This document shows positions 18,117 to 39,493 of a stretch of 64,000 nucleotides of DNA, piece after piece. The stretch lies in contig NZ_CP093341.1 of assembly GCF_022637455.1 (NCBI RefSeq), positions 2,790,001 through 2,854,000 on the forward strand, given 5' to 3'. The position numbers were made by a program, and so were the translations under genes. How positions within the stretch are numbered: the stretch's first letter is position 1; every line of letters begins with the position of its first letter. The notes under the pieces are model-generated. The model ran no database searches, was not told the DNA's origin, and saw only the letters and a list, made by a program, of their open reading frames with translations. The DNA is from Lysobacter sp. S4-A87. GTDB lineage: Bacteria > Pseudomonadota > Gammaproteobacteria > Xanthomonadales > Xanthomonadaceae.

Positions 18117-18752
18117 TCACCGCGCTGCGGTTTCGTCGCCGTGCAAGGTCATCAGCGACTGCATCAGCTGCTCGTCGCTGCTGGAGCACACGCCGAGCAG
18201 GACCACTTCCTCGCAACCTTCCGCGGCGACATAGGCATGGCCCATGTTGGAGTCGATGTACACCGATTCACCGGCCTCCAGCACGATCGGGTCGTAGAAC
18301 TCGGTGTGCACTTCGGCGCGCCCTTCGAGCACGTAGATGTACTCCTCGCCCGAATGCCGGACCAGGTCGCCGAACTCGCTGATGCTCTTGGCGCGCACGC
18401 GCGTGACCACCGGAATCATGCGTTTGCGGCGCAGTTCCGGGCAAAGGTAGTAGTAGTCGTAGTTGGGCGTGTTGACGCGGATGGAGTCGTCGAGGCGACC
18501 AATACTGCGGCGCGCGGTCACCGCCGGCTCGGAGGCCTCGTCGGTCTCGGCGAACAGCTCGGACATGCGGATGTTCAGGCGCTGGCTCAGCTGCAGCAGC
18601 TTGTCGTAGGTCAGCGTCAGCCGGTCGTGCTCGATCTTCGACAGCGTCGACAGCGGGATGCCGCACTTCAGGCTCATTTCCTTGAGCGTCCAGCCGTTAC
18701 GGGCGCGCAGCGAGCGCAGCAGGCTGCCAATGGTGGGGTGTTGCGAAGTCAT
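18117..18752 (-). CDS. XRE-cupin transcriptional regulator
   Basis: The 211-residue regulator has an N-terminal XRE helix-turn-helix (about 7-62, IGSLLRSLRARNGWTLKEMS then GIPLSTLSKIEHDRLTLTYDKL) and a C-terminal cupin sensor domain (HSGEEYIYVLEGRAEVHTEF...VLEAGESVYIDSNMGHAYV). This PuuR/SutR-type architecture commonly controls amino-acid or polyamine catabolism by sensing a small ligand. It is divergent from the serine hydrolase that starts the peptide/D-amino-acid operon, separated by 226 bp, and is its most likely regulator. I chose the ATG at 18752; a longer open frame upstream covers the promoter region. Confidence 0.88.
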   Translation of the reverse strand: MTSQHPTIGSLLRSLRARNGWTLKEMSLKCGIPLSTLSKIEHDRLTLTYDKLLQLSQRLNIRMSELFAETDEASEPAVTARRSIGRLDDSIRVNTPNYDYYYLCPELRRKRMIPVVTRVRAKSISEFGDLVRHSGEEYIYVLEGRAEVHTEFYDPIVLEAGESVYIDSNMGHAYVAAEGCEEVVLLGVCSSSDEQLMQSLMTLHGDETAAR

Positions 18753-18843
18753 TGCGTGGAGGCTCCTGCCGGCGGGTCCGGGGGGCCGCCTGGCGGGCGG
18801 ACCGGGGGACTGTGGCCATGATCCTGCGTTTTGCCGAAATTGG

Positions 18844-18897
18844 CCAGAACGGGTTGACAATTCTCTGATTAGGATCATTCTTGCCCAAACGGGTCGA
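18844..18897 (+). promoter_or_regulatory. Promoter/operator region of the peptide utilisation operon
   Basis: TTGACA at 18854-18859 is a consensus -35 box; 17 bp on, ATTCTT (18877-18882) is a poor -10. The box overlaps one of two related 14-bp direct repeats, CCAGAACGGGTTGA (18844-18857) and CCCAAACGGGTCGA (18884-18897), placed 40 bp (about four helical turns) apart. They are candidate sites for the divergent XRE-cupin regulator. Confidence 0.4.
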
Positions 18898-18978
18898 TAG
18901 TCGGCCTGAGTGCGCCCGGTTCTCCGGCTGCGCCAAGTGGATCCGCCCTACGGGCATGAACTTGGGGAGTACGTGTCG

Positions 18979-21021
18979 ATGCGTCTGACTGCAGTCTCGT
19001 GCCTGATCGGAATGATCCTGGCCCTGCCGGCAACTCTGGGCTTGGTGCAGCCGGCTTGGGCCCAGGAAGGACAGGACATCAAGCCGGCGGTGCCGGTACC
19101 GGGTGCGCCGGCGGCGGCCCTGCCGCAAGCGCCGGCCGTGGCGACCGACGTGCCGGTTCCCGGCGTGGCCGCGCTCAACCGCGCCGACGTCGAAGCCTGG
19201 CTCGACGGCTTCATGCCCTACGCGCTCAAGCGCGGCGACATCGCCGGCTCGGTGGTGGTGGTGGTGAAGGACGGCCAGGTGCTGCTGCAGAAGGGCTACG
19301 GCTATGCCGATGTCGCCTCGCGCAAGCCGGTCGATCCGGACAAGACCCTGTTCCGCCCCGGCTCTGTGTCCAAGCTGCTGACCTGGACCGCGGTGATGCG
19401 GCTGGTGGAGAGCGGCAAGCTCGACCTCGACCAGGACATCAACAAGTACCTGGACTTCCAGGTCCCCGCCCGCGACGGCAAGCCGGTCACGCTGCGCCAG
19501 GCCATGACCCACACCACGGGCATGGAAGAAACCGCGCGCGCGCTGATCGCCAACGACGAGAAGGGCCTGATTCCGCTCGAGGCCTACCTCAAGCACTGGG
19601 TGCCCACGCGCATCTATGACCCGGGCACCACCCCGTCTTACTCCAACTACGCCACCGCGCTGGCTGGCTACGTGGTCCAGCGCGTGTCGGGCATGCCGTT
19701 CGACGACTACATCGACCAGCACATCTTCAAGCCGCTGGACATGCAGCATTCGAGCTTCCGCCAGCCGCTGCCGAAGAACCTGCAGCCGCTGATGGCCAGT
19801 GGCTACTCGCGCGCGTCGGAGGGCAAGGCCAAGTCGTACGAGATCGTCAACCCGGCGCCGGCCGGCAGCCTGGCTGCCACCGGTGCGGACATGGCGAAGT
19901 TCATGATCGCCCACCTCAACAACGGTGCCTACGGCGACACCCGCATCCTGTCGGAAGCGACCGCGCGGCAGATGCACGACACCACGCTGACGATCCTGCC
20001 GCCGCTCAACCGCATGGCGCTGGGTTTCTACGAGGCCAACATCAACGGCCACCGTTCGGTCGCGCACGCCGGCGACACGCAGTGGTTCCACAGCGACCTG
20101 CACCTGTTCCCGGATGACGGCGTCGGCCTGTACATCTCGGTCAACTCCGGCGGCAAGGAAGGCGCGGCGCACGTGGTCCGCACCGAACTGTTCCAGGAGT
20201 TCGCCGAGCGTTACCTGCCCGGCCCGAATGCCGAAGGCAAGGTCGACGAAGCCACTGCCAAGCAGCACGCCGCGCAGATCGCCGGTCGTTACGACAACAG
20301 CCGCCGCTCCGAGGATGGCTTCGTCGCGATGGCCTACCTGCTCGGTCAGACGACCGTCGTGGCCAACGAGGACGGCACCATCACCGTGCCCGACCTGCTC
20401 GGCGCCAACGGCGCACCGCGCAAGTGGCGCGAAGTCGCACCGTATGTCTGGCGCGACGTCGACGGTCCGGACCGTATCGCCGCCAAGCTGGTCGACGGCA
20501 AGGTCGTGCGCTTCAGCACCGATCCGATCTCACCTTTCATGGTCTTCGACCGCACGCCCTGGCACCGCTCGGGCGGCGTGTTCCTGCCGATCCTGGCCAT
20601 TGGCCTGGGCGCGCTGCTGCTGACCGTGCTGGCCTGGCCGATCTCGGCCCTGGTGCGCCGCCATTACAAGGTGCCGTACCAGCTCAACGGTGCCGACGCC
20701 ACCTGGCACAAGCGCATCCGCATCACCTCGCTGGCCGTGCTGGTCGCGCTGGGCGCCGCAGTGGGCCTGGCGATCGGAATGCTGAGCAGCCTGGACATGC
20801 TCTCGCCGAGCAACGACAAGTGGGTGCACACGCTGCGCCTGCTGAACCTGGTGGTGCTGCCGCTGGGCGCGCTGGTCGGACTGGCCAATGCGTGGCACGT
20901 GCTACGCAGCGACCGCCGCTGGCCAGCCAAGCTGTGGAGCGTCGTGCTGGCACTGTCGATGCTGGGACTGCTGTGGTTCGGCATCTCCCAGAACATCCTC
21001 GGCTACAGCGCCAACTACTGA
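18979..21021 (+). CDS. Exported serine hydrolase (class C beta-lactamase fold) with membrane-spanning tail
   Basis: A 680-residue protein with a signal peptide (ends PAWAQ) and a low-complexity Pro/Ala/Val linker. The penicillin-binding/beta-lactamase-like domain (about 70-430) has nucleophile motif S129-V-S-K132 in RPGSVSKLL and Y221-S-N223. HAGDTQWFH provides the third motif area. After a beta-rich domain, the C-terminus has four predicted transmembrane helices (from about 535). This family includes D-aminopeptidases and esterases that act on D-residues. Leading an operon with a DgcA-like racemase and peptide transporter, it is probably a peptidase anchored in the inner membrane, facing the periplasm. 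The ATG at 18979 has GGGGAG upstream. Confidence 0.85.
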   Translation: MRLTAVSCLIGMILALPATLGLVQPAWAQEGQDIKPAVPVPGAPAAALPQAPAVATDVPVPGVAALNRADVEAWLDGFMPYALKRGDIAGSVVVVVKDGQVLLQKGYGYADVASRKPVDPDKTLFRPGSVSKLLTWTAVMRLVESGKLDLDQDINKYLDFQVPARDGKPVTLRQAMTHTTGMEETARALIANDEKGLIPLEAYLKHWVPTRIYDPGTTPSYSNYATALAGYVVQRVSGMPFDDYIDQHIFKPLDMQHSSFRQPLPKNLQPLMASGYSRASEGKAKSYEIVNPAPAGSLAATGADMAKFMIAHLNNGAYGDTRILSEATARQMHDTTLTILPPLNRMALGFYEANINGHRSVAHAGDTQWFHSDLHLFPDDGVGLYISVNSGGKEGAAHVVRTELFQEFAERYLPGPNAEGKVDEATAKQHAAQIAGRYDNSRRSEDGFVAMAYLLGQTTVVANEDGTITVPDLLGANGAPRKWREVAPYVWRDVDGPDRIAAKLVDGKVVRFSTDPISPFMVFDRTPWHRSGGVFLPILAIGLGALLLTVLAWPISALVRRHYKVPYQLNGADATWHKRIRITSLAVLVALGAAVGLAIGMLSSLDMLSPSNDKWVHTLRLLNLVVLPLGALVGLANAWHVLRSDRRWPAKLWSVVLALSMLGLLWFGISQNILGYSANY

Positions 21022-21040
21022 CGACGGCAGGAATCATCCA

Positions 21041-22039
21041 GTGACTACTGCCGTCAGTGTCGACGTCCGCAATGAACTGCTGCGCCTGGCCAAGCCGTTC
21101 CGCATCTCCGGCCACGTGTTCCGCGATTCGCCGGTGACGGTGGTGACCCTGCGCCATGGCCCTCACCAGGGCCGTGGCGAAGGGGCGGGGGTCTATTACC
21201 TGCGCGATGAGCCCGCCGACATGCTGGCGACGCTGGAATCGCACCGCGAGGTGATCGAGGCCGGGCTCGGCCGCGACGAGCTGCGCGCGCTGCTGCCGCC
21301 CGGCGGCGCCCGCAACGCGCTCGATTGCGCGCTGTGGGAGCTGGAATCCAGCCGCGCCAGCGTGCCGGTGTGGAAGCTGGCCGGGCTGGAATCCGCGCGA
21401 CCGTTGCTCACCACCTACACGCTGGGTGCGGACGAGCCGCAGGTGATGGGCGCCGGTGCGGTCGCCTACTCGCATGCCCGCGCCATCAAGATGAAGTTGA
21501 CCGGCGAAGTCGACATCGACATCGAACGCGTCCGTGCCGTGCGTGCCGCACGTCCGGACGTCTGGCTCGGCGTCGATGCCAACCAGGGCTATGTCGCCGA
21601 CACGCTGCAACGTCTGGTGCCGGTGCTCGTCGACGAAGGCGTCTCGCTGCTCGAGCAGCCGTGCGCGCGCGGCAACGAGGCCTGCCTCGATGGCCTGGAT
21701 TGCTCCGTGGCCATCGCCGCCGATGAAAGCGTGCAGGGCCTGGACGAGATCGAACCGCTGCTGGGCCGCTTCGACGTGGTCAACATCAAGCTCGACAAAT
21801 GCGGTGGCCTGACCGAAGGCCTGCTGATGGCCGAACGTGCACGCGCGCTGGGCCTGCAGGTGATGGTCGGCAACATGATCGGCACCAGCTGGGCGATGGG
21901 CGCCGGTTTCGTGCTCGGCCAGCACTGCGACATCGTCGACCTCGACGGTGCGCTGTTCCTGGCGCAGGACCGCAGCCCGGGGGTGATCTACGCCAACGGC
22001 CAGGTCGACTGCCCCGGCGACGTCTGGGGCGGTTGCTGA
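21041..22039 (+). CDS. Dipeptide epimerase-type enolase-superfamily enzyme, DgcA-like
   Basis: A 332-residue muconate-lactonising-subgroup enzyme. The catalytic lysine pair KMK is at 150-152, metal ligands are Asp179 (VDANQGY), Glu205 (LEQP) and Asp228 (ADES), and the second-side lysine is in NIKLDKCGG (250-253). The family is annotated as L-Ala-D/L-Glu epimerase, but members next to DUF1611 genes have been described as DgcA, an N-acetyl-D-glutamate racemase. Here a DUF1611 gene follows in the same operon, favouring the latter. The start is GTG, with AGGA 8 bp upstream, 19 bp after the hydrolase stop; the POT gene follows after 2 bp. Confidence 0.85.
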   Translation: MTTAVSVDVRNELLRLAKPFRISGHVFRDSPVTVVTLRHGPHQGRGEGAGVYYLRDEPADMLATLESHREVIEAGLGRDELRALLPPGGARNALDCALWELESSRASVPVWKLAGLESARPLLTTYTLGADEPQVMGAGAVAYSHARAIKMKLTGEVDIDIERVRAVRAARPDVWLGVDANQGYVADTLQRLVPVLVDEGVSLLEQPCARGNEACLDGLDCSVAIAADESVQGLDEIEPLLGRFDVVNIKLDKCGGLTEGLLMAERARALGLQVMVGNMIGTSWAMGAGFVLGQHCDIVDLDGALFLAQDRSPGVIYANGQVDCPGDVWGGC

Positions 22040-22041
22040 CG

Positions 22042-23367
22042 ATGGAGGCCAGCGTGCGCAGCAGCCGGGACCTGTTCGGCCAGCCGCGAGGCCTCACGGT
22101 GCTGTTCCTCACGCAGATGTGGGAGATCTTCTCCTACTACGGCATGCGCTCGCTGCTGGTCTATTACATGACCAAGCAGCTGCTGCTGGGCCAGCAGCAG
22201 GCGTCGCTGGTATATGGCATCTATACCGCGACCGTCTACTTCACGCCGATCATCGGCGGTGTCGTCTCCGATCGCTGGCTCGGCCGTCGCCGGGCCGTGA
22301 TCATCGGCGCCTCGATCATGGCGTTCGGCCATTTCCTGATGGCCTCCGAGAGCCTGTTCTACTTCGCGCTGGCCGCGATCGCACTCGGCAACGGTTTGTT
22401 CCTGCCGAGCCTGCCCAGCCAGATCGACGGTCTGTACGCCAAGGACGACCCGCGCCGTGGCTCGGCCTACAACGTGTACTACGTCGGGATCAATGTCGGT
22501 GGCCTGCTGGCGCCGCTGGTGTGCGGCACGCTGGGCGAACTCTACGGCTGGCACTACGGTTTCGGCGCGGCCGGCATCGGCATGGTCGCCGGCCTGCTGA
22601 TCTATGTGCTCGGCGCGCGCCACCTGCCCGAAGAAGGGCTGCACCCGCGTCGCATCGACACGCCAGCGCAGCCGACCGTTGCGCTGCAGCGCCATGAACT
22701 GTGGCAGCGCGTGCGCGTGCTGGTCGCGATCGCGCTGACGGTGATGCTGTTCCGCGGTGCCTACGAGCAGGTCGGCAACACGATCGCGCTGTGGGCCGAC
22801 ACCGGCATCAACCGCGTCCTCGGTGGCTTCACGATCCCGATGACGTGGTTCCAGTCGCTCAATCCGCTGCTCGTGATCGTGCTCACGCCGTTGTTCGTGG
22901 CGCACTGGACGCGGCAGGCGCGACACGGTCGCGAGCCCGCACCGGCGCGCAAGATGGCGATGGGCGCGGTGGGCGTGGCCTGCGCCTACCTGCTGCTCGC
23001 CGCCGTCAGCGCGAGCACGTCGGCGGGGCAGGCCAGCTGGATCTGGCTGGCGCTGTTCTTCCTGGTGCTGACCTCGGGCGAGCTGTTCATCCTGCCGATC
23101 GGCCTGGGCCTGTTCGCGCGACTGGCGCCGGCCGGGCATGGCGCCACCACCATCGCCGCGTGGTTCTCCGCGACCTTCGGCGGCAGCCTGCTTGCAGGCT
23201 TGCTGGGCACCTACTGGAGCGTGCTCGGGCCTACCTCCTTCTTCGTACTCATGGGCGCGGTCGGCATTGCCGCCGGCGTCCTGCTGTGGCTGCTCGACCG
23301 TCCCACCCGCCGGGTGGAAGCGGTCGCGCAGCTGCCCGCCGCGGCCGTGGGCCCGGCAACTCCTTAG
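22042..23367 (+). CDS. Proton-dependent oligopeptide transporter (POT/PTR2 family)
   Basis: The 441-residue inner-membrane protein has 12 predicted helices of the major facilitator superfamily. FFSYYGMRSLLVYYMT-like sequence in helix 1 (EIFSYYGMRSLLVYYMTKQ) and the signature GGVVSDRWLGRRRAVIIGA, followed by YYVGINVGGLLAPLVCG, identify the POT family of proton-coupled di- and tripeptide importers. It starts 2 bp after the epimerase stop codon, so the two are tightly coupled. With the TonB receptor downstream it forms a two-membrane peptide uptake route. Confidence 0.92.
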   Translation: MEASVRSSRDLFGQPRGLTVLFLTQMWEIFSYYGMRSLLVYYMTKQLLLGQQQASLVYGIYTATVYFTPIIGGVVSDRWLGRRRAVIIGASIMAFGHFLMASESLFYFALAAIALGNGLFLPSLPSQIDGLYAKDDPRRGSAYNVYYVGINVGGLLAPLVCGTLGELYGWHYGFGAAGIGMVAGLLIYVLGARHLPEEGLHPRRIDTPAQPTVALQRHELWQRVRVLVAIALTVMLFRGAYEQVGNTIALWADTGINRVLGGFTIPMTWFQSLNPLLVIVLTPLFVAHWTRQARHGREPAPARKMAMGAVGVACAYLLLAAVSASTSAGQASWIWLALFFLVLTSGELFILPIGLGLFARLAPAGHGATTIAAWFSATFGGSLLAGLLGTYWSVLGPTSFFVLMGAVGIAAGVLLWLLDRPTRRVEAVAQLPAAAVGPATP

Positions 23368-23415
23368 TCCGCACAACCAGTCCACCAGCTTCCAGTTCAC
23401 CAGGGGAACGAAGAC

Positions 23416-25785
23416 ATGCACGACGTTGACGCAAGCAGCAAACAGGCAAACTCGAAGCGCACGTCGATGCGAACGCTGCGCCGCAGCCCGCTGGCGATGG
23501 TCATCACCGGCACGCTGGCCATGGCCGTGACCGGATCGGCCTTCGCCCAGGACGCCGCCGCCGCCGGCGGCCGCAGCGCGACCGAGCTCGACAAGGTCGT
23601 GGTCACGGCCAACAAGCGCTCGGAGAACATCCGCGAAGTGCCGTCCTCGATCAGCGTGATCACCGAGGAGAGCATCGAGAACTCGCACGCCACCCAGCTC
23701 AGCGACTTCCAGTCCACCGTGCCGGGCCTGTACATCAGCACCAACGGCTCGCCGGGCAAGACCCAGGTCTCGCTGCGCGGCGTGTCGCCGCTCTCCTCCA
23801 GCGCAACCGTCGGCACCTATCTGGACGAAACCCCGCTGGGTTCCAGTGGCATCTACCAGGCCGCCAACTTCTTTGCGCTCGACCTGCTGCCGTACGACAT
23901 CGGCCGGATCGAGGTGCTGCGCGGACCGCAGGGCACGCTGTACGGCGCAAGCGCCATGGGTGGCCTGGTCAAGTACGTGTCGGTGGCGCCGGACCTGGCC
24001 AACACGGAATTCCGTGTCGGTGGCGGACTGTCGAGCGTCGAGGACTCCGGTGACCTGGGCTGGAACGCCCGGTTCGGTGCGAACCTGCCACTGGTCGACG
24101 ATCGCCTCGGACTGCGCGTGAGCTACGCGCAGAACGAACTTCCCGGCTACATCGACAACGTCGTCAATGGCGAGGAAGACATCAACTCCGGCAAGCAGAC
24201 CAGCGCGCGGGTCGCGCTGCGCTGGCAGGGCGAGGCCGCCACGCTCGACCTGACGGCGATGCGCCAGACCGTCGACAGCGACAACAACGGCGTGGTCGCG
24301 CTGGACCCGGAGAGCCAGCAGCCGCTGTTCGGCGATCTCACCAACAACGTCATTGTCGATGAACCGTTCTTCAAGGACGTCGATTACTACTCGGCCACGG
24401 TGAACTGGAACCTGGGCTGGGCCGACTTCGTTTCGGCCACCGGCTATTCCGAGTCGCGCAGCAACCAGCGCCAGGACACCACCGTGCTGTATGGCGGCGT
24501 CGCCGACATGCTGCTTGGCCTGCCGGAACCGGGCAGCTCGTACTTCGACATCGGCCTGGACCTGGACAAGTTCACCCAGGAGTTCCGACTGGTCTCGAAG
24601 GAGAGCGGTCCGTTCGAGTGGATGGCCGGCGTGTTCTACACCAAGGAAGACGCTTTCCAGAAGCAGACGGCGAAGCTTAACCAGCTTGACGGATCGCCGC
24701 TGCCGGCGCCGTTCGACGCCATCGCAGGCACGCTGGCGGTCCTGCAGATCCCCAGCACGTATGAAGAAACCGCGTTCTTCGCCAACGGCGCCTACAACTT
24801 CACCGATGCATTCAAGATCGGCGCCGGCGTGCGCTGGTCGCGCAACGAGCAGGATTTCTCGCAGGACGTCACTGAAGGCATCCTCGTGCCGCTGGGCAGC
24901 ACGCCCAACAGTTCGTCCGAAGACGTCTTCACCTGGAGCCTGAGCCCGCAGCTGCAGCTCAGCGATGAGGCGATGCTCTACGCGCGCGTCGCCACCGGCT
25001 ACCAGCCGGGTGGTCCGAACGTGCTGGTCGAGGGCCTGCCGTCGCAGGTCGATGCCTCCACGCTGACCAACTACGAGCTCGGCCTGAAGTCGCTGTGGCT
25101 CGACAATCGCCTGCAGTTCGACCTGACCGGCTTCCATATCGCGTGGGAAGACATCCAGGTCGCATCGGTGGTGAACGGCATCTCCGGCCTGGTCAACGCC
25201 GGCAAGGCCAGCAGCACCGGTATCGAACTGGCGGCGGTGTTCCATGCCAGCAGCAACTTCGACCTCGGCCTCAACGGCTCCTACACCGACTCCAAACTCG
25301 ACGAGAGCTTCCCGGTGATCTCGGTGGAGTCGCCGCCGTACCTGGTGGAGATCACGAGCGGTGCCAAGGGCGACGCACTGCCGTACGTGCCCGAGTGGTC
25401 CTGGAACGCCACGGCCGACTACTACCTGCCGCTTTCCAATGGCTGGACCGCGCACTTCGGCGGCGCCCTGCGCTACGTCGGCGCGCGTCGCAACGGCACC
25501 ACCAACCGCCAGGACATCCTCGATCCCAGCACCACGCCGCCGACGCTGCTGATGAGCGACGTCACCCTGCCGCTGGAGCTGGACAGCTACACGGCAGTCG
25601 ACCTCAATGCCTACGTCAGCAACGAGAACTGGACGTTCCGCGCGTATGTGAAGAATGTCAGCGACGAACGCGCTTACCAGTCCATCAACGACGTCACCAG
25701 CGAGCTGACCGACGTCACCGAGAAGCTCGTCGCCGCGCCCATCCAGCCGCGGACCTTCGGCATCGAGGTCGACTACAGGTTCTGA
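23416..25785 (+). CDS. TonB-dependent receptor of the peptide utilisation locus
   Basis: A 789-residue outer-membrane receptor. It has a signal peptide (ends GSAFAQ at about 43), a TonB-box-like ELDKVVVTANKRSENI, the plug domain (REVPSSISVITEESIEN to RIEVLRGPQGTLYGASAMGGLV), and a 22-strand-type barrel finishing with GIEVDYRF, whose terminal Phe is the barrel-assembly signal. It resembles the oligopeptide/siderophore-type receptors abundant in this bacterial group. Its place between a POT importer and the DUF1611 gene suggests transport of peptides or peptidoglycan fragments. Confidence 0.92.
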   Translation: MHDVDASSKQANSKRTSMRTLRRSPLAMVITGTLAMAVTGSAFAQDAAAAGGRSATELDKVVVTANKRSENIREVPSSISVITEESIENSHATQLSDFQSTVPGLYISTNGSPGKTQVSLRGVSPLSSSATVGTYLDETPLGSSGIYQAANFFALDLLPYDIGRIEVLRGPQGTLYGASAMGGLVKYVSVAPDLANTEFRVGGGLSSVEDSGDLGWNARFGANLPLVDDRLGLRVSYAQNELPGYIDNVVNGEEDINSGKQTSARVALRWQGEAATLDLTAMRQTVDSDNNGVVALDPESQQPLFGDLTNNVIVDEPFFKDVDYYSATVNWNLGWADFVSATGYSESRSNQRQDTTVLYGGVADMLLGLPEPGSSYFDIGLDLDKFTQEFRLVSKESGPFEWMAGVFYTKEDAFQKQTAKLNQLDGSPLPAPFDAIAGTLAVLQIPSTYEETAFFANGAYNFTDAFKIGAGVRWSRNEQDFSQDVTEGILVPLGSTPNSSSEDVFTWSLSPQLQLSDEAMLYARVATGYQPGGPNVLVEGLPSQVDASTLTNYELGLKSLWLDNRLQFDLTGFHIAWEDIQVASVVNGISGLVNAGKASSTGIELAAVFHASSNFDLGLNGSYTDSKLDESFPVISVESPPYLVEITSGAKGDALPYVPEWSWNATADYYLPLSNGWTAHFGGALRYVGARRNGTTNRQDILDPSTTPPTLLMSDVTLPLELDSYTAVDLNAYVSNENWTFRAYVKNVSDERAYQSINDVTSELTDVTEKLVAAPIQPRTFGIEVDYRF

Positions 25786-25791
25786 CCGAAG

Positions 25792-26835
25792 ATGCACGCA
25801 GCCCGCTCGTTGCACGAACCCGTCTCGCCCGCATTGCCCGCGCCGTACCTGCTGTTCCTGGGGGACACGGTCGAGCCCGGTTACGCCAAGACCGCCTTCG
25901 GTCTGCGTGACTGGGCGCCGGAGCGGTGCGTGGGCGAGTACCTGCTACCCGGCGCCCGTGTCAGCACGGGCCTGCCGGCGATGTCGCCGGCGCAGGCGCA
26001 CGCGGCCGGTGCGCGCGCGCTGGTGATAGGAGTGGCCAACGCCGGTGGCGTCATTCCCGAACACTGGGTGGCGGCGCTGGTCACCGCTGTCGAATCCGGG
26101 CTCGACATCATCAGCGGCATGCACATGCGCCTGGCGGAGCTGCCTGCACTGCAGCGCGCCGCCACGCGTCATGGCCGCCGGTTGATCGACGTGCGCCGTC
26201 CACCGGACAAGCTGCCCATTGCCACCGGGCACAAGCGCAGCGGCAACCGGTTGCTGACGGTCGGTACCGATTGTGCGCTGGGCAAGAAGTACACGGCACT
26301 GGCACTGGCACGCGCCTTCACCTCGCGCGGGCTCGATGCCGACTTCCGCGCCACCGGCCAGACCGGGATCCTGATCGCCGGCGGTGGCATTCCCATGGAT
26401 GCGGTGATCGCCGATTTTGCCGCCGGCGCGGCCGAGATGCTCTCGCCCGATGCAGCCGCTTCGCACTGGGACGTGATCGAAGGCCAGGGCTCGCTGTTCC
26501 ATCCGGCCTACGCCGGCGTGTCGCTGGCGTTGCTGCATGGCAGCCAGCCCGACGTGGTCGTGGTCTGCCACCAGCCCGGCCGCGATCGCGTGCTTGGCCA
26601 CGCGCACTACGCATTGCCGAGCATCGAAGACACCATCGCGCTGAACCTGCAGCTGGGCCGTCGTACCAATCCGCACATCCGTTGCGGCGGCGTCAGCCTC
26701 AACACCGCGCACCTCGACGTAGACGCCGCGCGTCGCCTGCTGGCGGCCGAAAGCGATCGCCTCGGTTGCGCCGTCGCCGACCCGATCCGTGGCGGCGCCG
26801 AATTTGAAGCAATGGTCAACCAATGTCTGGGATGA
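25792..26835 (+). CDS. DUF1611 protein, probable D-glutamate N-acetyltransferase (DgcN-like)
   Basis: A 347-residue DUF1611 family protein. The N-terminal Rossmann-like half has LVIGVANAGGVIPEHWV and ISGMHMRLAELPAL; the C-terminal half has a P-loop-like VGTDCALGKKYTALALARA, then ATGQTGILIAGGGIPMDAVIADF, VIEGQGSLFHPAYAGVSLALLHG and a closing NP-type segment. Family members called DgcN transfer an acetyl group to D-glutamate, working with DgcA, which racemises N-acetyl-D-Glu. The DgcA-like gene is in this operon. The start is 6 bp after the TonB-receptor stop. The biochemical assignment is by family and context, not proven. Confidence 0.82.
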   Translation: MHAARSLHEPVSPALPAPYLLFLGDTVEPGYAKTAFGLRDWAPERCVGEYLLPGARVSTGLPAMSPAQAHAAGARALVIGVANAGGVIPEHWVAALVTAVESGLDIISGMHMRLAELPALQRAATRHGRRLIDVRRPPDKLPIATGHKRSGNRLLTVGTDCALGKKYTALALARAFTSRGLDADFRATGQTGILIAGGGIPMDAVIADFAAGAAEMLSPDAAASHWDVIEGQGSLFHPAYAGVSLALLHGSQPDVVVVCHQPGRDRVLGHAHYALPSIEDTIALNLQLGRRTNPHIRCGGVSLNTAHLDVDAARRLLAAESDRLGCAVADPIRGGAEFEAMVNQCLG

Positions 26836-28463
26836 ACATGAAAACGTCTGGGAAGCGACGGATGCACAAACCCACCATGCTGCAGCTGATGCCGGCCATT
26901 GCCGGCGTTGCCTTCAGCTTTGCCGCATGGGCGGCGCCACCGGCCGACCTGGACGAGCATGTCAACGCGGTGATCCGCGAACAGGGCGTGCCGGGCATGG
27001 CCGTCACCATCGTCGAGCAGGGCAAGGTGGTGCACGCCAGGGGCTACGGCGTGCGCAAGCTTGGCTCGCCCGAGCCGGTCGACGCGGACACGATCTTCCC
27101 GACCGGATCCACCGGCAAGGCGATTACTACCGCGGCGCTGGCCGTGCTGGTCGACGAGGGCAAGATCGGCTGGGATGACAAGGTCATCGACCACATCCCC
27201 GGCTTCCAGATGTACGACGCCTGGGTCACGCGCGAGATGACCATCCGCGACCTGCTCGTGCACCGCAGCGGCCTGGGCCTGGGCGCGGGCGACCTGATGT
27301 TCGTGCCGCGCTCCTCGCTCAGCCGCGCCGAAACCGTGCGTCGCCTGCGCTACATCAAGCCGGCGACCAGCTTCCGCAGCGGCTATGCCTACGACAACCT
27401 GCTGTACGCCGTCGCCGGCCAGCTGATCGAGGAAGTCAGCGGCCAGGACTGGGAGACGTTCGTGCGCGAGCGCGTGCTCAAGCCGGCCGGCATGCGCACC
27501 TCGACCACGCGCGATGTCGACCGCTGGGCCACCGCCAACCGCGTCCAGCCGCATGCGCGCATGGACGGCGGCTTCCGCGGCGTCGGCAAGCAGGAAGTGC
27601 TGGACGAGCGCCAGAGCCTGGGCGCCAATGCCTCGCCGGCCGGCGGCGTGTCGTCGAGCGCGAACGACTTCGGCCGGTGGCTGTCGATCCAGCTCGCCCA
27701 CGGCGCGTTGCCGGACGGCAAGGGCCGCCTCTTCAGTGAGGACGCCTCGCGCGAGATGTGGACGCCGCAGGTGCTGATGCCGATCAACGCCTATCCGGCG
27801 CCCATTGCCGAGGCCACGCCGCAGTTCTCGGCCTACGCGCTGGGCTGGGACGTGCGCGATTACCGCGGCGCCAAGATCATCGAACACGGTGGCGCCGTAT
27901 TTGGCGTGCAGACGATGGTGGTGCTGATCCCCGAAAAGCAGGTCGCCTTCTCGCTGCAGATCAACTCCGAGGACGGCGTGGTCCTGCGCGGCCTGACCTT
28001 TGAGTTGCTCGACCACTACCTGGGCGCACCGAAGCGAGACTGGGTCGGCGACTTCGCGGCCTACAAGAAGGCCCGCGTCGATGGCGCGCTGGAGTTCCTG
28101 GCCAAGAGCAAGGCGGAGAAGAAGCCTTCGCGCCCGTCACTGCCGCTGGACGGCTACGCCGGCAAGTTCGCCGACCCGTGGTACGGGCCGATCGAGATCA
28201 CCGTTGGCAAGAGCGGCGCGGAGAACGGTCGCCTGCGCCTGAACTTCAGGCAGACGCCGAACATGGTCGGCACCCTGGAGCACTGGCAGTACGACACCTT
28301 CCAGGTTCGCTGGGATGACCGCACTGCGGAGCCGGCCTATGTGAGCTTCGGCATCGATGCCGACGGCAAGGTCGACCGGATCAAGATGAAGGCGGTGTCG
28401 CCGCTGGCGGACTTCAGCTGGGACTACCACGACCTGCTGTTCACGCCGCAAGCAGGCGGGTGA
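26832..28463 (+). CDS. Exported serine hydrolase (beta-lactamase fold) with DUF3471 tail
   Basis: A 543-residue exported protein whose ATG overlaps the stop of the DUF1611 gene (ATGA at 26832-26835). It has a hydrophobic signal (AIAGVAFSFAAWA), the nucleophile motif S93-T-G-K96 (FPTGSTGKAI), a tyrosine motif SGYAYDNLLY and an EHGGAVFG third motif. The C-terminal 120 residues form the lipocalin-like DUF3471 domain common in D-amino-acid-directed serine hydrolases. It is the last gene of the operon and a second candidate periplasmic peptidase; an in-frame ATG at 26823 is an alternative start. Confidence 0.85.
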   Translation: MNMKTSGKRRMHKPTMLQLMPAIAGVAFSFAAWAAPPADLDEHVNAVIREQGVPGMAVTIVEQGKVVHARGYGVRKLGSPEPVDADTIFPTGSTGKAITTAALAVLVDEGKIGWDDKVIDHIPGFQMYDAWVTREMTIRDLLVHRSGLGLGAGDLMFVPRSSLSRAETVRRLRYIKPATSFRSGYAYDNLLYAVAGQLIEEVSGQDWETFVRERVLKPAGMRTSTTRDVDRWATANRVQPHARMDGGFRGVGKQEVLDERQSLGANASPAGGVSSSANDFGRWLSIQLAHGALPDGKGRLFSEDASREMWTPQVLMPINAYPAPIAEATPQFSAYALGWDVRDYRGAKIIEHGGAVFGVQTMVVLIPEKQVAFSLQINSEDGVVLRGLTFELLDHYLGAPKRDWVGDFAAYKKARVDGALEFLAKSKAEKKPSRPSLPLDGYAGKFADPWYGPIEITVGKSGAENGRLRLNFRQTPNMVGTLEHWQYDTFQVRWDDRTAEPAYVSFGIDADGKVDRIKMKAVSPLADFSWDYHDLLFTPQAGG

Positions 28464-33545: not shown

Positions 33546-34774
33546 TGCGGTTTCAACCGGTCGATGCAACACACTGAAGGCTGCCTCGGCAGCAGGAGTG
33601 TTGCAGATGAAGTACCGGGCAAGGATCTGTTACACGGAAGGCCAGAAGGCCCTGATGTGGGACCGCTGGCAACAGGGCGATTCGCTGCACCAAATCGCCC
33701 GGCTGTTTGATCGTCGCCACAGCTCGGTTCGCGGGATCCTGGCCGCGTCCGGTGGGATCCGGCCACCTCAGCGCCGCCGTTCTGAGCGGACGCTGAGCTT
33801 GGCCGAGCGGGAAGAGATTTCGCGGGGCGTGGTGAGCGGGCAATCGATCCGTTCGATCGCGGCCGCGCTGGGGCGGGCGCCGTCCACAGTGAGCCGCGAA
33901 CTGCGACGCAACGAGGGTTCTGATGGCTACCGGGCGAACCGGGCCGACCAGGCCGCCTGGGACCGGGCGCGTCGTCCAAAGACTTGTAAGCTGGCCCGGC
34001 ATCGAGCCTTGGCGCGGCAGGTCGCAGCTAAGCTTCAACAGCGCTGGTCTCCGCAGCAGATCGCCGGATGGCTCAAGCGCATCCATCCAGACGACGCGAG
34101 CGGTCAGGTGTCACACGAGACGATCTACCGCACGCTCTTCATCCAAGCCCGAGGCGCCTTAAAACAGGAGCTTCTGGGCTACCTGAGGCGCACGCGAGCA
34201 ATGCGCCGCTCACGCCACCACACACAGAAGGCCGACAACCACGGCCGCATCAGCGACACCGTATCGATCCGCGAGCGCCCTGCAGCGGTCGAAGACCGGG
34301 CCGTGCCGGGCCATTGGGAGGGCGACCTGTTGTTTGGCAGCAGCAACAGTCAGATTGCCACGCTGGTGGAGCGGCATACGCGCTACGTCATGCTGGTGAA
34401 GGTCGGCGGCAAGGACACCGAAACGGTCATCGACGCGCTGATCAACAACGCACGGCGCCTGCCGAAGGAACTGTATCGATCGTTGACCTGGGACCGCGGT
34501 AAGGAGATGGCTGATCATCGCCGATTCACCATGGCGACCGACATCCAGGTCTACTTCTGCGATCCGCAGCATCCATGGCAGCGCGGTTCAAACGAGAACA
34601 CCAACGGATTGCTTCGGCAGTACTTCCCCAAGGGTCTCGATCTGTCCACGATCACGCAGGCCAAGCTTGACGCCGTGGCCAGAGAGTTGAACGGACGGCC
34701 CCGGAAGACGCTAGGCTACGAAACACCGGCCGAACGATTTCAACAAGCTGTTGCATCGACCGGTTGAAACCGCA
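33546..34774 (+). mobile_element. IS30-family insertion sequence, copy 2 (1229 bp)
   Basis: Perfect 26-bp terminal inverted repeats (left TGCGGTTTCAACCGGTCG..., right its reverse complement) bound the element, and the dinucleotide AC at 33544-33545 is repeated at 34775-34776, a plausible 2-bp target duplication. It carries an intact transposase gene on the plus strand and seems identical to copy 1, but inverted. Its right end is 31 bp from the 3' end of the DUF1254 lipoprotein gene, which it does not disrupt. Confidence 0.94.
33607..34767 (+). CDS. IS30-family transposase, copy 2
   Basis: The 386-residue DDE transposase is identical in translation to copy 1 (6675-7835). It has two N-terminal helix-turn-helix segments and the acidic catalytic residues in WEGDLLFG, LTWDRGKEM and GSNENTNG. 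The ATG at 33607 has AGGAG 8 bp upstream, inside the element; a GTG at 33598 would overlap that site. The stop codon lies within the right terminal repeat. Confidence 0.95.
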   Translation: MKYRARICYTEGQKALMWDRWQQGDSLHQIARLFDRRHSSVRGILAASGGIRPPQRRRSERTLSLAEREEISRGVVSGQSIRSIAAALGRAPSTVSRELRRNEGSDGYRANRADQAAWDRARRPKTCKLARHRALARQVAAKLQQRWSPQQIAGWLKRIHPDDASGQVSHETIYRTLFIQARGALKQELLGYLRRTRAMRRSRHHTQKADNHGRISDTVSIRERPAAVEDRAVPGHWEGDLLFGSSNSQIATLVERHTRYVMLVKVGGKDTETVIDALINNARRLPKELYRSLTWDRGKEMADHRRFTMATDIQVYFCDPQHPWQRGSNENTNGLLRQYFPKGLDLSTITQAKLDAVARELNGRPRKTLGYETPAERFQQAVASTG

Positions 34775-36613: not shown

Positions 36614-37690
36614 ATGCACCGAAGGGAACTCATCGGCGCGCTGGCAGCATTGCCGTTGGCCATCGGCTTGCCTGGCTGCGCGCAGGTCGGTGGAATCAGA
36701 GCCAAGGACCGGCAGGTGATGACGGTCGCGGGCCCCATCGACGCCTCCGCGCTCGGCATGACGCTCAGCCATGAGCATCTTTTCGCCGACCTGCGACCCT
36801 ATGCCGAGCAGATCTCAACACCCATCCCGCTGGGCGGTGATGTGGTCGAGGTGATACTGCCCCATCTCCAGGAGATCCGGCGTCTGGGTTGCCGCTCGGT
36901 GATCGACTGCACTGCAACGACGCTCGGGCGCAACCCCGCCCTGATCAAGCGCCTGTCAGAGGCGAGCGGGTTGCAGATGCTTACGGTGACAGGGGCATAT
37001 GTCGCCGCGGGTGGCCGCTTCGTCCCACCTTACGTATTGGACGAAACCGACGAGGAGCTCGCCGCGCGCTGGATCGGCGAATGGCGGCACGGAATTGGCG
37101 ACACGCGAATCCGCCCAGGCCTGATCAAGCTCGGGATCGAGGGCGATCCGCTCAGTGCTACCGAGCGCAAGGTGCTGCTTGCCGGCGCACGTACGCATCT
37201 TGAGACGGGCCTCGTTATCGCATCCCACACCGGTCCCTGGGCGCAAGTCGAGCCCGGTCGCAATGCCCGGTGTGCGTTCGCGCAACTGGACCTGCTGGAA
37301 GGCGCCGGCGTCGATCCGTCTGCATGGATCTGGGTTCACGCCCAGAACGAAGTGCGGGGTGACCTTCACGTCCAGGCGGCCGGGCGTGGTGCCTGGGTGT
37401 CGTTCGACGGGTTCCGGCCCGGTCAGGAGAACGGGTACGTCGCCATGATCGGACGCATGCGCGACGAAGGTCTCCTGGAGCGCGTGCTCGTGTCGCAGGA
37501 CGCTGGCTGGTACAACGCCGGGCAGCCACGAGGCGGCGAGTTCAAGCCCTTCCATCCGATCTTCACCGCGTTGATCCCGGCCTTGCGGAAGGGGGGATTC
37601 GACGAAAGCCAGATGCAGATGCTCTTCGTCCACAACCCGGCGCGCGCATTCGCCCTGCGGACGTCGGAATGGATCAGCGGTGACACGTGA
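36614..37690 (+). CDS. Phosphotriesterase-family lipoprotein (amidohydrolase superfamily)
   Basis: A 358-residue metal-dependent hydrolase of the PTE family. A short lipoprotein signal (GLPGC, Cys22) precedes the TIM barrel. The metal-binding landmarks are in order: LSHEHLFADLR (HxH), PGLIKLG with the bridging Lys, IASHTGP, WVHAQNE, and the catalytic Asp in VSQDAGWY. PTE-family proteins act as lactonases or phosphotriesterases; the natural substrate here is unknown. GAAGGG lies ahead of the ATG. The serine hydrolase gene follows after 96 bp. Confidence 0.9.
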   Translation: MHRRELIGALAALPLAIGLPGCAQVGGIRAKDRQVMTVAGPIDASALGMTLSHEHLFADLRPYAEQISTPIPLGGDVVEVILPHLQEIRRLGCRSVIDCTATTLGRNPALIKRLSEASGLQMLTVTGAYVAAGGRFVPPYVLDETDEELAARWIGEWRHGIGDTRIRPGLIKLGIEGDPLSATERKVLLAGARTHLETGLVIASHTGPWAQVEPGRNARCAFAQLDLLEGAGVDPSAWIWVHAQNEVRGDLHVQAAGRGAWVSFDGFRPGQENGYVAMIGRMRDEGLLERVLVSQDAGWYNAGQPRGGEFKPFHPIFTALIPALRKGGFDESQMQMLFVHNPARAFALRTSEWISGDT

Positions 37691-37786
37691 TTGCGTGCCG
37701 AAATTCTCGCCTAAATCAGTTCGTGTGGGGGCGGCGCCAGGTTGCGCGGTCCCACGCTGTCGTGTGCAAACAACCAGGGGTCACTC

Positions 37787-39493
37787 GTGCGTGTAAGTCC
37801 ATCCGCTTTCTTGATTACGATCATCACCGCCGCTTTGGCCGCGCAGCCATCTGCCGTGCGAGCCCAGTCAGCAAGCGCTTCACCCGCTGATCGCCACAAG
37901 CAAGTGGACGCGATCTTCGCGCCATGGAGCGGCACCACCACGCCAGGCTGCGCGGTGGGCATATCCCGCGACGGCGTGCTGGATTACACGCACGGTTACG
38001 GCATGTCGAATCTCGAGTACGACGTGGCCATCACCCCGGAATCGATCTTCCACGTCGGCTCCATCTCCAAGCAGTTCACCGCCTTCTCGGTCGCGTTGCT
38101 GGCGCAAGACGGAAAGTTGTCGCTGGACGATGACATCCGCAAGTACGTGCCGGAGATGCCGGACTTTGGCAAGACGATCACCATTTCGCACCTGATCCAT
38201 CACAGCAGTGGCCTGCGCGAGCAGGGGCAGCTGCTGTACCTGGCCGGCTGGCGCAGCGACGACATGATGACCGAGGCCGACATGCTGGCGATCGCGGCGA
38301 AGCAGCGCGGGCTGAACTTCGCGCCGGGGACCGAGACGCTTTACAACAACCTGGGCTATACGTTGCTGGCAGTGATTGTGAAGCGTGTATCCGGCAAGCC
38401 GCTGTGGGCCTTCGCCGATGAGCGGATCTTCCAGCCATTGGGCATGACCGACACGCACTTTCAGGACGACCACACCGAGATCGTGCGGCGTCGCACCGCG
38501 GCGTATCAGGCGCACAAGGACGGCGGATGGCGCATCAGCATCCCGGCGTCCGACTACTACGGCCCGACCGGTCTGTTCACCACGGTGGGCGACCTGCTGA
38601 AGTGGCAGGACAACTTCGTCCACGCACGTGTTGGCGGACGATCGCTGGTGGAATCGATGCAGACATCGGCCACATCGGACAACGGAGCGGTGAGCGGCTA
38701 CGGTGGTGGAGTGTTCGTCCGCAGCTATCGCGGCCTGCGCACGGTAGGCCACGACGGCGTGCACGCTGGCTATCGCGCGGACGCTCTTGCCTTCCCCGAT
38801 CAGCGGCTGGCAATCGTGACGCTGTGCAATGGCGCCACGATTGCCCCCCAGGAGCTCACACAGAAGGTCGCTGCCGTGTATCTGGGTAATCGCATGACGC
38901 CCATGGCACCCTCGGTGAAGGAGCCGGATGCAGCGTTGTCGACGCTGGCTGGGGTCTACTGGAGTTCGTTGACGGACGAAGTGGTGCGGGTGGAGGTGAA
39001 GGACGGTGTGCTGCGCCCCCTTGGCGCGTCGTCTCCGCTTGAATCACTCGGGAGTGGGCTGTTTCGCTTGGGCGAGGCGGCACAATGGCGATTCGACACC
39101 GCCGCCGAGGATGCGCCGGGAGAACGCGAACTGCGGATCTGGGACGCCTGGCCCACGCCGCGGGTATTTGCCCGCGTCAACGAGCCGATGCCATCTGCGT
39201 CGGCGCTGGCCTCCTTCGCGGGGCAGTACCGCATCGACGAGGTCGACATGACCTATACGGTACTCATGGCGGACGGCAAGCTGACCCTGCGCTGGCCTCG
39301 CCAGGCTGATCTCATGCTTGAAGCCGTCGGCGGTGATCGCTTCGTCAGCGGCGCATGGACGGTGACCTTCACACGGACGGCGTCGGGCGAGGTGGATGGA
39401 TTGACGATGACTGCACGTCGACTGCGGCGCATGCGCGCGGAACGGCTCGGTACCGCTACAGGGCCTTCGCTTGCTTTCGATACGCCACGATGA
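37787..39493 (+). CDS. Exported serine hydrolase (beta-lactamase fold) with two C-terminal beta domains
   Basis: A 568-residue protein starting at GTG (AGGGG 7 bp upstream) with a signal peptide ending AVRAQ. The nucleophile motif is S92-I-S-K95 (HVGSISKQF), the tyrosine motif YNNLGYTLL, and the third motif VGHDGVHAG. After about residue 385 there are two DUF3471-like beta domains (LSTLAGVYWSS and LASFAGQYRIDE). It is probably a periplasmic D-aminopeptidase or esterase. It is the third member of this fold in the window, but is not in the peptide locus. Its 3' end overlaps the convergent cupin gene by 38 bp. Confidence 0.86.
   Translation: MRVSPSAFLITIITAALAAQPSAVRAQSASASPADRHKQVDAIFAPWSGTTTPGCAVGISRDGVLDYTHGYGMSNLEYDVAITPESIFHVGSISKQFTAFSVALLAQDGKLSLDDDIRKYVPEMPDFGKTITISHLIHHSSGLREQGQLLYLAGWRSDDMMTEADMLAIAAKQRGLNFAPGTETLYNNLGYTLLAVIVKRVSGKPLWAFADERIFQPLGMTDTHFQDDHTEIVRRRTAAYQAHKDGGWRISIPASDYYGPTGLFTTVGDLLKWQDNFVHARVGGRSLVESMQTSATSDNGAVSGYGGGVFVRSYRGLRTVGHDGVHAGYRADALAFPDQRLAIVTLCNGATIAPQELTQKVAAVYLGNRMTPMAPSVKEPDAALSTLAGVYWSSLTDEVVRVEVKDGVLRPLGASSPLESLGSGLFRLGEAAQWRFDTAAEDAPGERELRIWDAWPTPRVFARVNEPMPSASALASFAGQYRIDEVDMTYTVLMADGKLTLRWPRQADLMLEAVGGDRFVSGAWTVTFTRTASGEVDGLTMTARRLRRMRAERLGTATGPSLAFDTPR

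What the first reader, a model, noticed from the sequence alone, without database searches (positions are those of the whole stretch)
18117..28463. Self-contained locus for uptake and racemisation of D-amino-acid peptides
Seen: one strand holds an exported serine hydrolase with a membrane tail, a DgcA-like epimerase/racemase, a POT transporter, a TonB receptor, a DUF1611 protein and a second exported serine hydrolase, with spacings of 2-50 bp and ATGA overlaps. A divergent XRE-cupin gene faces them. Known: DUF1611 (DgcN) plus enolase-superfamily DgcA has been described as a D-glutamate route via N-acetyl-D-Glu. Inference: adding a receptor, peptide importer and two D-directed hydrolases makes a complete outside-to-inside system for D-Glu-containing peptides such as peptidoglycan fragments. 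I know of no description of this six-gene combination.
Basis: partly seen in the sequence, partly recalled or inferred. Interest (0 to 1): 0.75.

Follow-up and report, generated by a model that had tools for sequence, protein, structure and literature searches.

The report
D-peptide uptake locus with own switch

Summary
The genes are real: a divergent XRE-cupin regulator facing S12 hydrolase, epimerase, POT transporter, TonB receptor, DUF1611 and a second S12 hydrolase. They form a conserved unit: of 247 family genomes, 42 carry this epimerase type, all 42 have DUF1611, and 41 of 43 epimerase genes lie within 10 kb of one. A promoter/operator-like element (TTGACAATTYTCYRATYAGGATCATT) lies in 46 of 46 regulator-hydrolase intergenic regions, recurs before receptor, M19 dipeptidase or DUF1611, goes with the regulator's ortholog and is single in this genome. 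Best reading: a dedicated regulon for D-amino-acid-containing peptides. The D-glutamate part is weakened: the epimerase is below the DgcA cut-off and lacks the RGx[RK] loop (0 of 77; canonical pairs 10 of 10; nearest solved enzymes 2 of 2), and six genomes keep a canonical dgcN-dgcA pair besides. DUF1611 itself still scores like DgcN. The POT has lost the ExxER motif. The nearest relatives of the microcystin transporter MlrD among 299 Pseudomonadota genomes are POTs of this locus type; MlrB, MlrE and MlrF show no such tie. Substrate, activities and DNA binding are untested.

The parts
18117..18752 (-). XRE-cupin regulator, divergent from the operon
   Evidence: Pfam HTH_19, HTH_3 and Cupin_2; relative at 60% identity or more in 43 of 63 loci
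18854..18879 (+). promoter/operator-like element TTGACAATTCTCTGATTAGGATCATT pointing at the operon
   Evidence: in 46 of 46 XRE|S12a intergenic regions, this one being the seed; single site in the genome at up to 3 mismatches; position
18979..21021 (+). S12a: S12 serine hydrolase, signal-like start, hydrophobic C-terminal stretches (alternative GTG start 18973)
   Evidence: PF00144; SxxK, YSN and HxG residues invariant in 48 of 48 aligned; solved relatives include an alkaline D-peptidase
21041..22039 (+). EPI: enolase-superfamily epimerase, dipeptide-epimerase/DgcA-like
   Evidence: MR_MLE domains; NF042940 335 bits, cut-off 400; loop change
22042..23367 (+). POT-family peptide transporter without the ExxER motif
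   Evidence: PTR2, TIGR00924 over its cut-off, motif, tree
23416..25785 (+). TonB-dependent receptor
   Evidence: Plug and beta-barrel
25792..26835 (+). DUF1611 protein, DgcN-like
   Evidence: PF07755 and PF17396; NF041892 452 bits, cut-off 480; only DUF1611 match in the genome
26823..28463 (+). S12b: S12 serine hydrolase with DUF3471, signal-like start (alternative ATG 26832)
   Evidence: PF00144 and PF11954; STGK, YDN, HGG in the sequence

Best explanation
One regulon for scavenging peptides that contain D-amino acids. Inferred flow: the TonB receptor brings oligopeptides into the periplasm; S12a (probably membrane-attached) and S12b cut them at or near D-residues; the atypical POT carries the small products into the cytoplasm; the epimerase inverts a residue in a dipeptide (or N-acyl amino acid) so that ordinary L-peptidases can finish; DUF1611 acetylates the D-amino acid that is left, as DgcN is named to do for D-Glu. 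The XRE-cupin regulator acts at the conserved element in front of each transcription unit. Shown by sequence: the gene set, its conservation, the shared element and its association with the regulator, and the lost motifs in epimerase and POT. Inferred: every enzymatic step, the direction of transport, regulator binding. The residue inverted is more likely neutral or hydrophobic than Glu, because the Arg loop is replaced by Gly/Phe.
For: Linkage: of 247 genomes, 42 carry this epimerase type (53% identity or more), all 42 have DUF1611; 41 of 43 epimerase genes lie within 10 kb of it, 40 on the same strand upstream. Of 63 loci chosen by DUF1611, 19 have all seven parts and 55 have S12a + epimerase. 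Element: 46 of 46 divergent regions, 20-31 of 31, best of 230 single-base shuffles 19; 28 further sites before TonB receptor (16), M19 (10) or DUF1611 (2), reversed matrix 0; present in 37 of 43 loci with the regulator at 60% or more, in 2 of the other 20. Theme: relatives add M19 dipeptidases and amidohydrolases of MlrF's family; solved S12 relatives include an alkaline D-peptidase and ClbP, a D-amino peptidase with a transmembrane domain (PMC9889268, passages). Epimerase: RGx[RK] 0 of 77 with catalytic residues and DxD kept; the solved dipeptide epimerase 3jva also lacks the Arg.
Against: No activity, substrate or DNA binding was tested. S12 relatives also include class C beta-lactamases and carboxylesterases. 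The receptor's best profile is of siderophore receptors, below cut-off. The POT lost a motif usually linked to proton coupling (role recalled), so import is not assured. DUF1611 keeps D-Glu possible. Six of 48 DUF1611-bearing genomes lack this epimerase type. The element matrix was trained on intergenic sites of the same loci, so one search is partly by construction; 6 of 43 loci with the regulator stay at or under 25 bits, though two of these reach 19.9 and 23.9; one of two plasmid copies lacks the element; the promoter scan listed no sigma-70-like site in the region.
Confidence: 0.55

Rival explanations
1. D-Glu/peptidoglycan-fragment system: the epimerase handles L-Ala-D-Glu or N-acetyl-D-Glu and DUF1611 acetylates D-Glu.
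For: DgcN and DgcA are the best NCBIfam models of the two proteins; DUF1611 scores between two members of canonical pairs and one canonical subgroup is sister to the locus branch; DxD is kept.
Against: RGx[RK] absent in 77 of 77; epimerase below both curated cut-offs; six genomes carry a separate canonical pair.
Confidence: 0.2
2. Primarily defence: the two hydrolases disarm D-containing nonribosomal peptides such as cyclic lipopeptides, and the import genes make use of the pieces.
For: A Stenotrophomonas maltophilia genome has all seven parts (L091), and a strain of that species degrades Bacillus lipopeptides to amino acids with inducible enzymes that the paper leaves open (PMC12516957, passages).
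Against: The passages seen do not name these genes, and the locus was not looked for in that strain. The one peptide-antibiotic-degrading enzyme of the species seen here, against colistin, is a subtilisin-type S08 protease, not S12 (PMC9389796, passages). Receptor and importer fit feeding better than defence.
Confidence: 0.13
3. Recycling of the cell's own wall peptides rather than use of foreign peptides.
For: Peptidoglycan is a common source of D-residues (recalled).
Against: A TonB receptor is not needed for the cell's own periplasmic fragments (inference); patchy distribution, 42 of 247, and plasmid copies suit an accessory trait.
Confidence: 0.06
4. An ordinary peptide or siderophore uptake locus in which the enzymes are incidental.
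For: Receptor and POT belong to common families.
Against: Tight conserved linkage and a shared element.
Confidence: 0.06

Closest known systems
DgcN-DgcA D-glutamate route
   Same: DUF1611 N-acetyltransferase family and DgcA-like racemase family
   Different: the genes are not side by side, DUF1611 forms its own branch, the RGx[RK] loop is lost, and receptor, transporter, hydrolases and XRE-cupin are added
[quoted passage not shown]
   Same: enolase superfamily; KxK, metal ligands, second Lys and DxD in place (roles recalled)
   Different: Arg-containing loop of 1jpd and 4gfi replaced by Gly/Phe, two-residue insertion after KxK; 3jva lacks the Arg too
mlr microcystin cluster (mlrCADBEF)
   Same: S12 hydrolase, POT, dipeptidase and D-aminoacylase families; MlrD branches with this locus's POTs (PMC4520899 whole text)
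   Different: no MlrA or MlrC match at E 1e-20 in the loci held outside the Sphingosinicella genome; MlrB and MlrE have nearer relatives outside the locus
ClbP, and D-stereospecific resistance peptidases (the latter recalled and cited in PMC12516957)
   Same: S12 domain, and in S12a hydrophobic C-terminal stretches
   Different: sits in an uptake locus, not a biosynthetic cluster; substrate specificity not tested

Membership tests
DgcN-DgcA pathway | DgcA at or above the curated equivalog cut-off | tested here: not met
   335.3 of 400 bits; two canonical-pair members 400.9 and 436.7; two other locus members 344.7 and 377.4
DgcN-DgcA pathway | DgcN at or above the curated cut-off | tested here: inconclusive
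   452.4 of 480, but a canonical-pair member scores 441.5
DgcN-DgcA pathway | dgcN directly followed by dgcA | tested here: not met
   0 of 63 loci; canonical 10 of 10
DgcN-DgcA pathway | activity on D-Glu and N-acetyl-D-Glu | not testable with these tools
   needs purified enzymes
L-Ala-D/L-Glu epimerase | catalytic Lys pair, metal ligands, DxD | tested here: met
   alignment, (roles recalled)
L-Ala-D/L-Glu epimerase | Arg of the RGx[RK] loop | tested here: not met
   0 of 77 locus rows (one short row left out), 10 of 10 canonical, 1jpd and 4gfi have it; annotated Ruegeria DgcA has it
POT/PTR2 transporter | family profile | tested here: met
   PF00854 173.8 bits, cut-off 27
POT/PTR2 transporter | ExxER motif | tested here: not met
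   Arg absent in 37 of 37 readable locus POTs, present in 30 of 31 readable others; first Glu absent in 35 of 37, present in 27 of 28
S12 serine hydrolase | SxxK, YxN, HxG | tested here: met
   S12a 48 of 48; S12b in the window's sequence
S12 serine hydrolase, D-specific | cleavage at D-residues | not testable with these tools
   needs an assay
mlr microcystin cluster | MlrA and MlrC present | tested here: not met
   no match at E 1e-20 outside the Sphingosinicella genome among the loci held then

The most novel reading that the evidence does not exclude
A previously undescribed XRE-cupin regulon of Xanthomonadales, Sphingomonadales and Steroidobacter for eating nonribosomal-type peptides with neutral D-residues, from whose transporter lineage the microcystin pathway drew MlrD.
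Probability: 0.3. Interest if true: 0.82.

Novelty: new variant of a known kind. Interest (0 to 1): 0.62.

Why it matters
If right, it names candidate genes and a candidate switch for how soil and freshwater bacteria consume D-amino-acid peptides, perhaps including microbial toxins and lipopeptides. It offers a source for one microcystin-pathway gene whose origin a 2019 paper calls unknown (PMC6563193, passages). It also warns that the dipeptide-epimerase genes of this locus type should not be annotated as D-glutamate enzymes by default.

Tried and rejected
Rejected: that the whole mlr cluster derives from this locus. Only MlrD has its nearest kin here. MlrB's best matches in 299 genomes are elsewhere (top 214 bits; another S12 of the window 206 bits; locus S12a 73.5 bits). 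The two best MlrE matches (52% and 49%) lie where no other locus gene was found, one of them on a stretch cut by the contig end; the next matches were not examined. MlrF is 31-35% identical to the amidohydrolases of the loci.

Rejected: that DUF1611 is dispensable because the variant locus L209 lacks it; that genome has a DUF1611 elsewhere.

Led nowhere: the D-Glu pathway paper and two dipeptide-epimerase papers are not held, and searches gave no residue data; inverted repeats in the intergenic region; structure prediction. Label errors to know: tBLASTn labels S12a and S12b are superfamily-level at low identity, so their counts include paralogues; in the POT tree five of 43 rows labelled 'locus' fall outside (four are other POTs of the Sphingosinicella genome, one is a 27% match in L076) and were left out; one DUF1611 row labelled 'locus' by default (L019, a 2.2-kb fragment) falls with a canonical subgroup.
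Full report
The window encodes, on the + strand, S12 hydrolase, epimerase, POT transporter, TonB receptor, DUF1611 and S12-DUF3471, with spacings of 19, 2, 48 and 6 bp and one overlap, facing an XRE-cupin gene on the - strand. Pfam confirms the families. Read by eye, both hydrolases and the receptor begin with signal-like stretches, while epimerase and DUF1611 do not. The genome holds one DUF1611 match. The nearest named DUF1611 relatives are of Lysobacter and Lysobacteraceae (89-93%); the window's organism itself is not named to me.

The set is one unit. Among the 63 (tBLASTn E 1e-8, 35% coverage) S12a is found in 62, the regulator in 56, the epimerase in 56, an extra membrane protein in 51, S12b in 46, the receptor in 40, an amidohydrolase in 33 and the POT in 25; 19 have all seven window parts. 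Order: S12a is followed directly by the epimerase in 41 of 63, epimerase by POT in 23, receptor by DUF1611 in 37, DUF1611 by the membrane protein in 45 and by S12b, as in the window, in 5; the regulator is divergent from S12a in 35 of the 56 that have both. A second count does not start from DUF1611: of 247 genomes of the family, 42 carry this epimerase type (43 genes at 53% identity or more), all 42 have DUF1611, 41 of 43 genes lie within 10 kb of one, and 40 are on the same strand upstream of it; in the other direction 6 of 48 DUF1611-bearing genomes lack the type. Genomes are related, so the hypergeometric value is only indicative. Of 115 plasmid records with an epimerase match I opened three: Novosphingobium and Sphingobium plasmids have the same order under the records' own names, the first with no second S12 hydrolase listed, the second without the POT but with a dipeptidase at the end; the third is the canonical Ruegeria dgcN-dgcA.

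The set has a shared element. Of 46 regulator-hydrolase intergenic regions of the loci held, all 46 contain a GGTTGACAATTYTCYRATYAGGATCATTATT-like stretch pointing at the hydrolase, scoring 20-31 of 31 against the window's own copy (which scores 31 by construction); the best of 230 single-base shuffles is 19. A matrix from these sites finds 64 sites over 25 bits in the 63 loci: 36 before S12a, and 28 that were not used for training, 16 before the TonB receptor, 10 before an M19 dipeptidase and 2 before DUF1611, that is, at the start of the second half of a split locus. The reversed matrix finds none. The element is over 25 bits in 37 of 43 loci whose regulator is at least 60% identical to the window's, in 1 of 13 with a more distant regulator (that one at 59.4%) and in 1 of 7 with none found; 20 control loci, canonical and mlr loci among them, stay below zero. 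The comparison is partly by construction, since the matrix was trained on such loci. In this genome the element occurs once within 3 mismatches, before this operon, and the window has no second site. One of two plasmid copies has it. The simple promoter scan did not list it. That the regulator binds it is inference.

The substrate is the open point. The epimerase's best model is DgcA, at 335 bits against a cut-off of 400; the L-Ala-D/L-Glu epimerase model gives 210 against 343. None of 77 locus epimerases has the RGx[RK] loop, which 10 of 10 canonical-pair members and the nearest solved enzymes 1jpd and 4gfi have; positions 24 and 27 are Gly in 100% and Phe in 97%. An annotated Ruegeria DgcA also has the loop. 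That this Arg binds the glutamate side chain in the Bacillus enzyme is recalled, not read here. The solved dipeptide epimerase 3jva also lacks it; its taste for neutral residues is recalled. Catalytic residues and DxD remain. DUF1611 of this locus forms one starred branch of 96 rows; canonical DgcN rows fall into two subgroups, of which one is the sister of that branch, and DUF1611 scores with the DgcN model between two canonical members, so this half of the D-Glu reading stands. The route itself, D-Glu to L-Glu by DgcN and DgcA, I saw in passages of PMC10845958. Six genomes have both this locus and a canonical pair, which argues for different jobs. The POT has lost the ExxER motif: the Arg is absent in 37 of 37 readable locus sequences and present in 30 of 31 background ones.

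Relation to microcystin degradation. The mlr cluster is described with an oligopeptide-transporter-like MlrD, a dipeptidase MlrE and a D-aminoacylase MlrF (PMC4520899 whole text; PMC6256522 and PMC6563193 passages); that MlrB is of the S12 type is from my comparison. I read the cluster in the Sphingosinicella microcystinivorans genome. MlrD, searched against 299 Pseudomonadota genomes (91 with a match), has as best match the POT of this very window (329 bits), then G471 (315 bits), then 202 bits. The G471 gene lies in a variant locus with S12a, receptor, regulator and epimerase but no DUF1611. In the tree MlrD is the sister of 38 locus POTs with 98/89 support, with the G471 gene next outside (99/96), on a long branch that leaves the exact place unsure; it too lacks the Arg of the motif. 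MlrB, MlrE and MlrF do not show this tie.

Literature. Searches showed no description of this combination. One search was swamped by unrelated words (576 papers, 20 listed) and says nothing; the one hit lists a Xanthomonas dipeptide epimerase in a table without context (PMC6090828, passage). The library lacks most subscription papers, so this is not proof of novelty. Stenotrophomonas maltophilia degrades Bacillus lipopeptides to amino acids with inducible enzymes left open (PMC12516957, passages), and one genome of that species carries the locus (L091). Whether the same strain does, and whether these genes are induced, is untested.

Verdict: a real, conserved locus with a shared control element, most likely for D-amino-acid-containing peptides; a new variant of known D-amino-acid and dipeptide-epimerase systems, with the D-glutamate assignment weakened and the substrate unknown.

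Noticed in passing
window 37742-39493: A third S12 + DUF3471 hydrolase, third-best match of MlrB in 299 genomes (206 bits, 35%); it follows a phosphotriesterase-family gene at 36614-37690.
   Followed up: partly
window 33598-34767: Transposase-like gene with HTH_38 and rve domains (IS30-like by recall) about 5 kb downstream of the locus.
   Followed up: no
L035 11017-12135, and the same family in 50 other of 63 loci: Conserved membrane protein usually between DUF1611 and S12b; the one member scanned has no Pfam or NCBIfam match at 0.001 and a profile of 35 has no PDB sequence match at E 1. Resembles YkvI-type proteins by recall.
   Followed up: partly
L131, L132, L136, L137: Canonical dgcN-dgcA pairs followed by an amidohydrolase, a second kind of D-amino-acid locus; L136 and L137 also hold an S12 hydrolase that matches MlrB best among the queries.
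   Followed up: partly
L063, L067: Two DUF1611 genes of the locus branch in one stretch of Sphingobium.
   Followed up: no
L041, L044: Locus parts in two Chthoniobacterales MAG contigs with 73-74% identity to the window's DUF1611; transfer or mis-binning not resolved.
   Followed up: no
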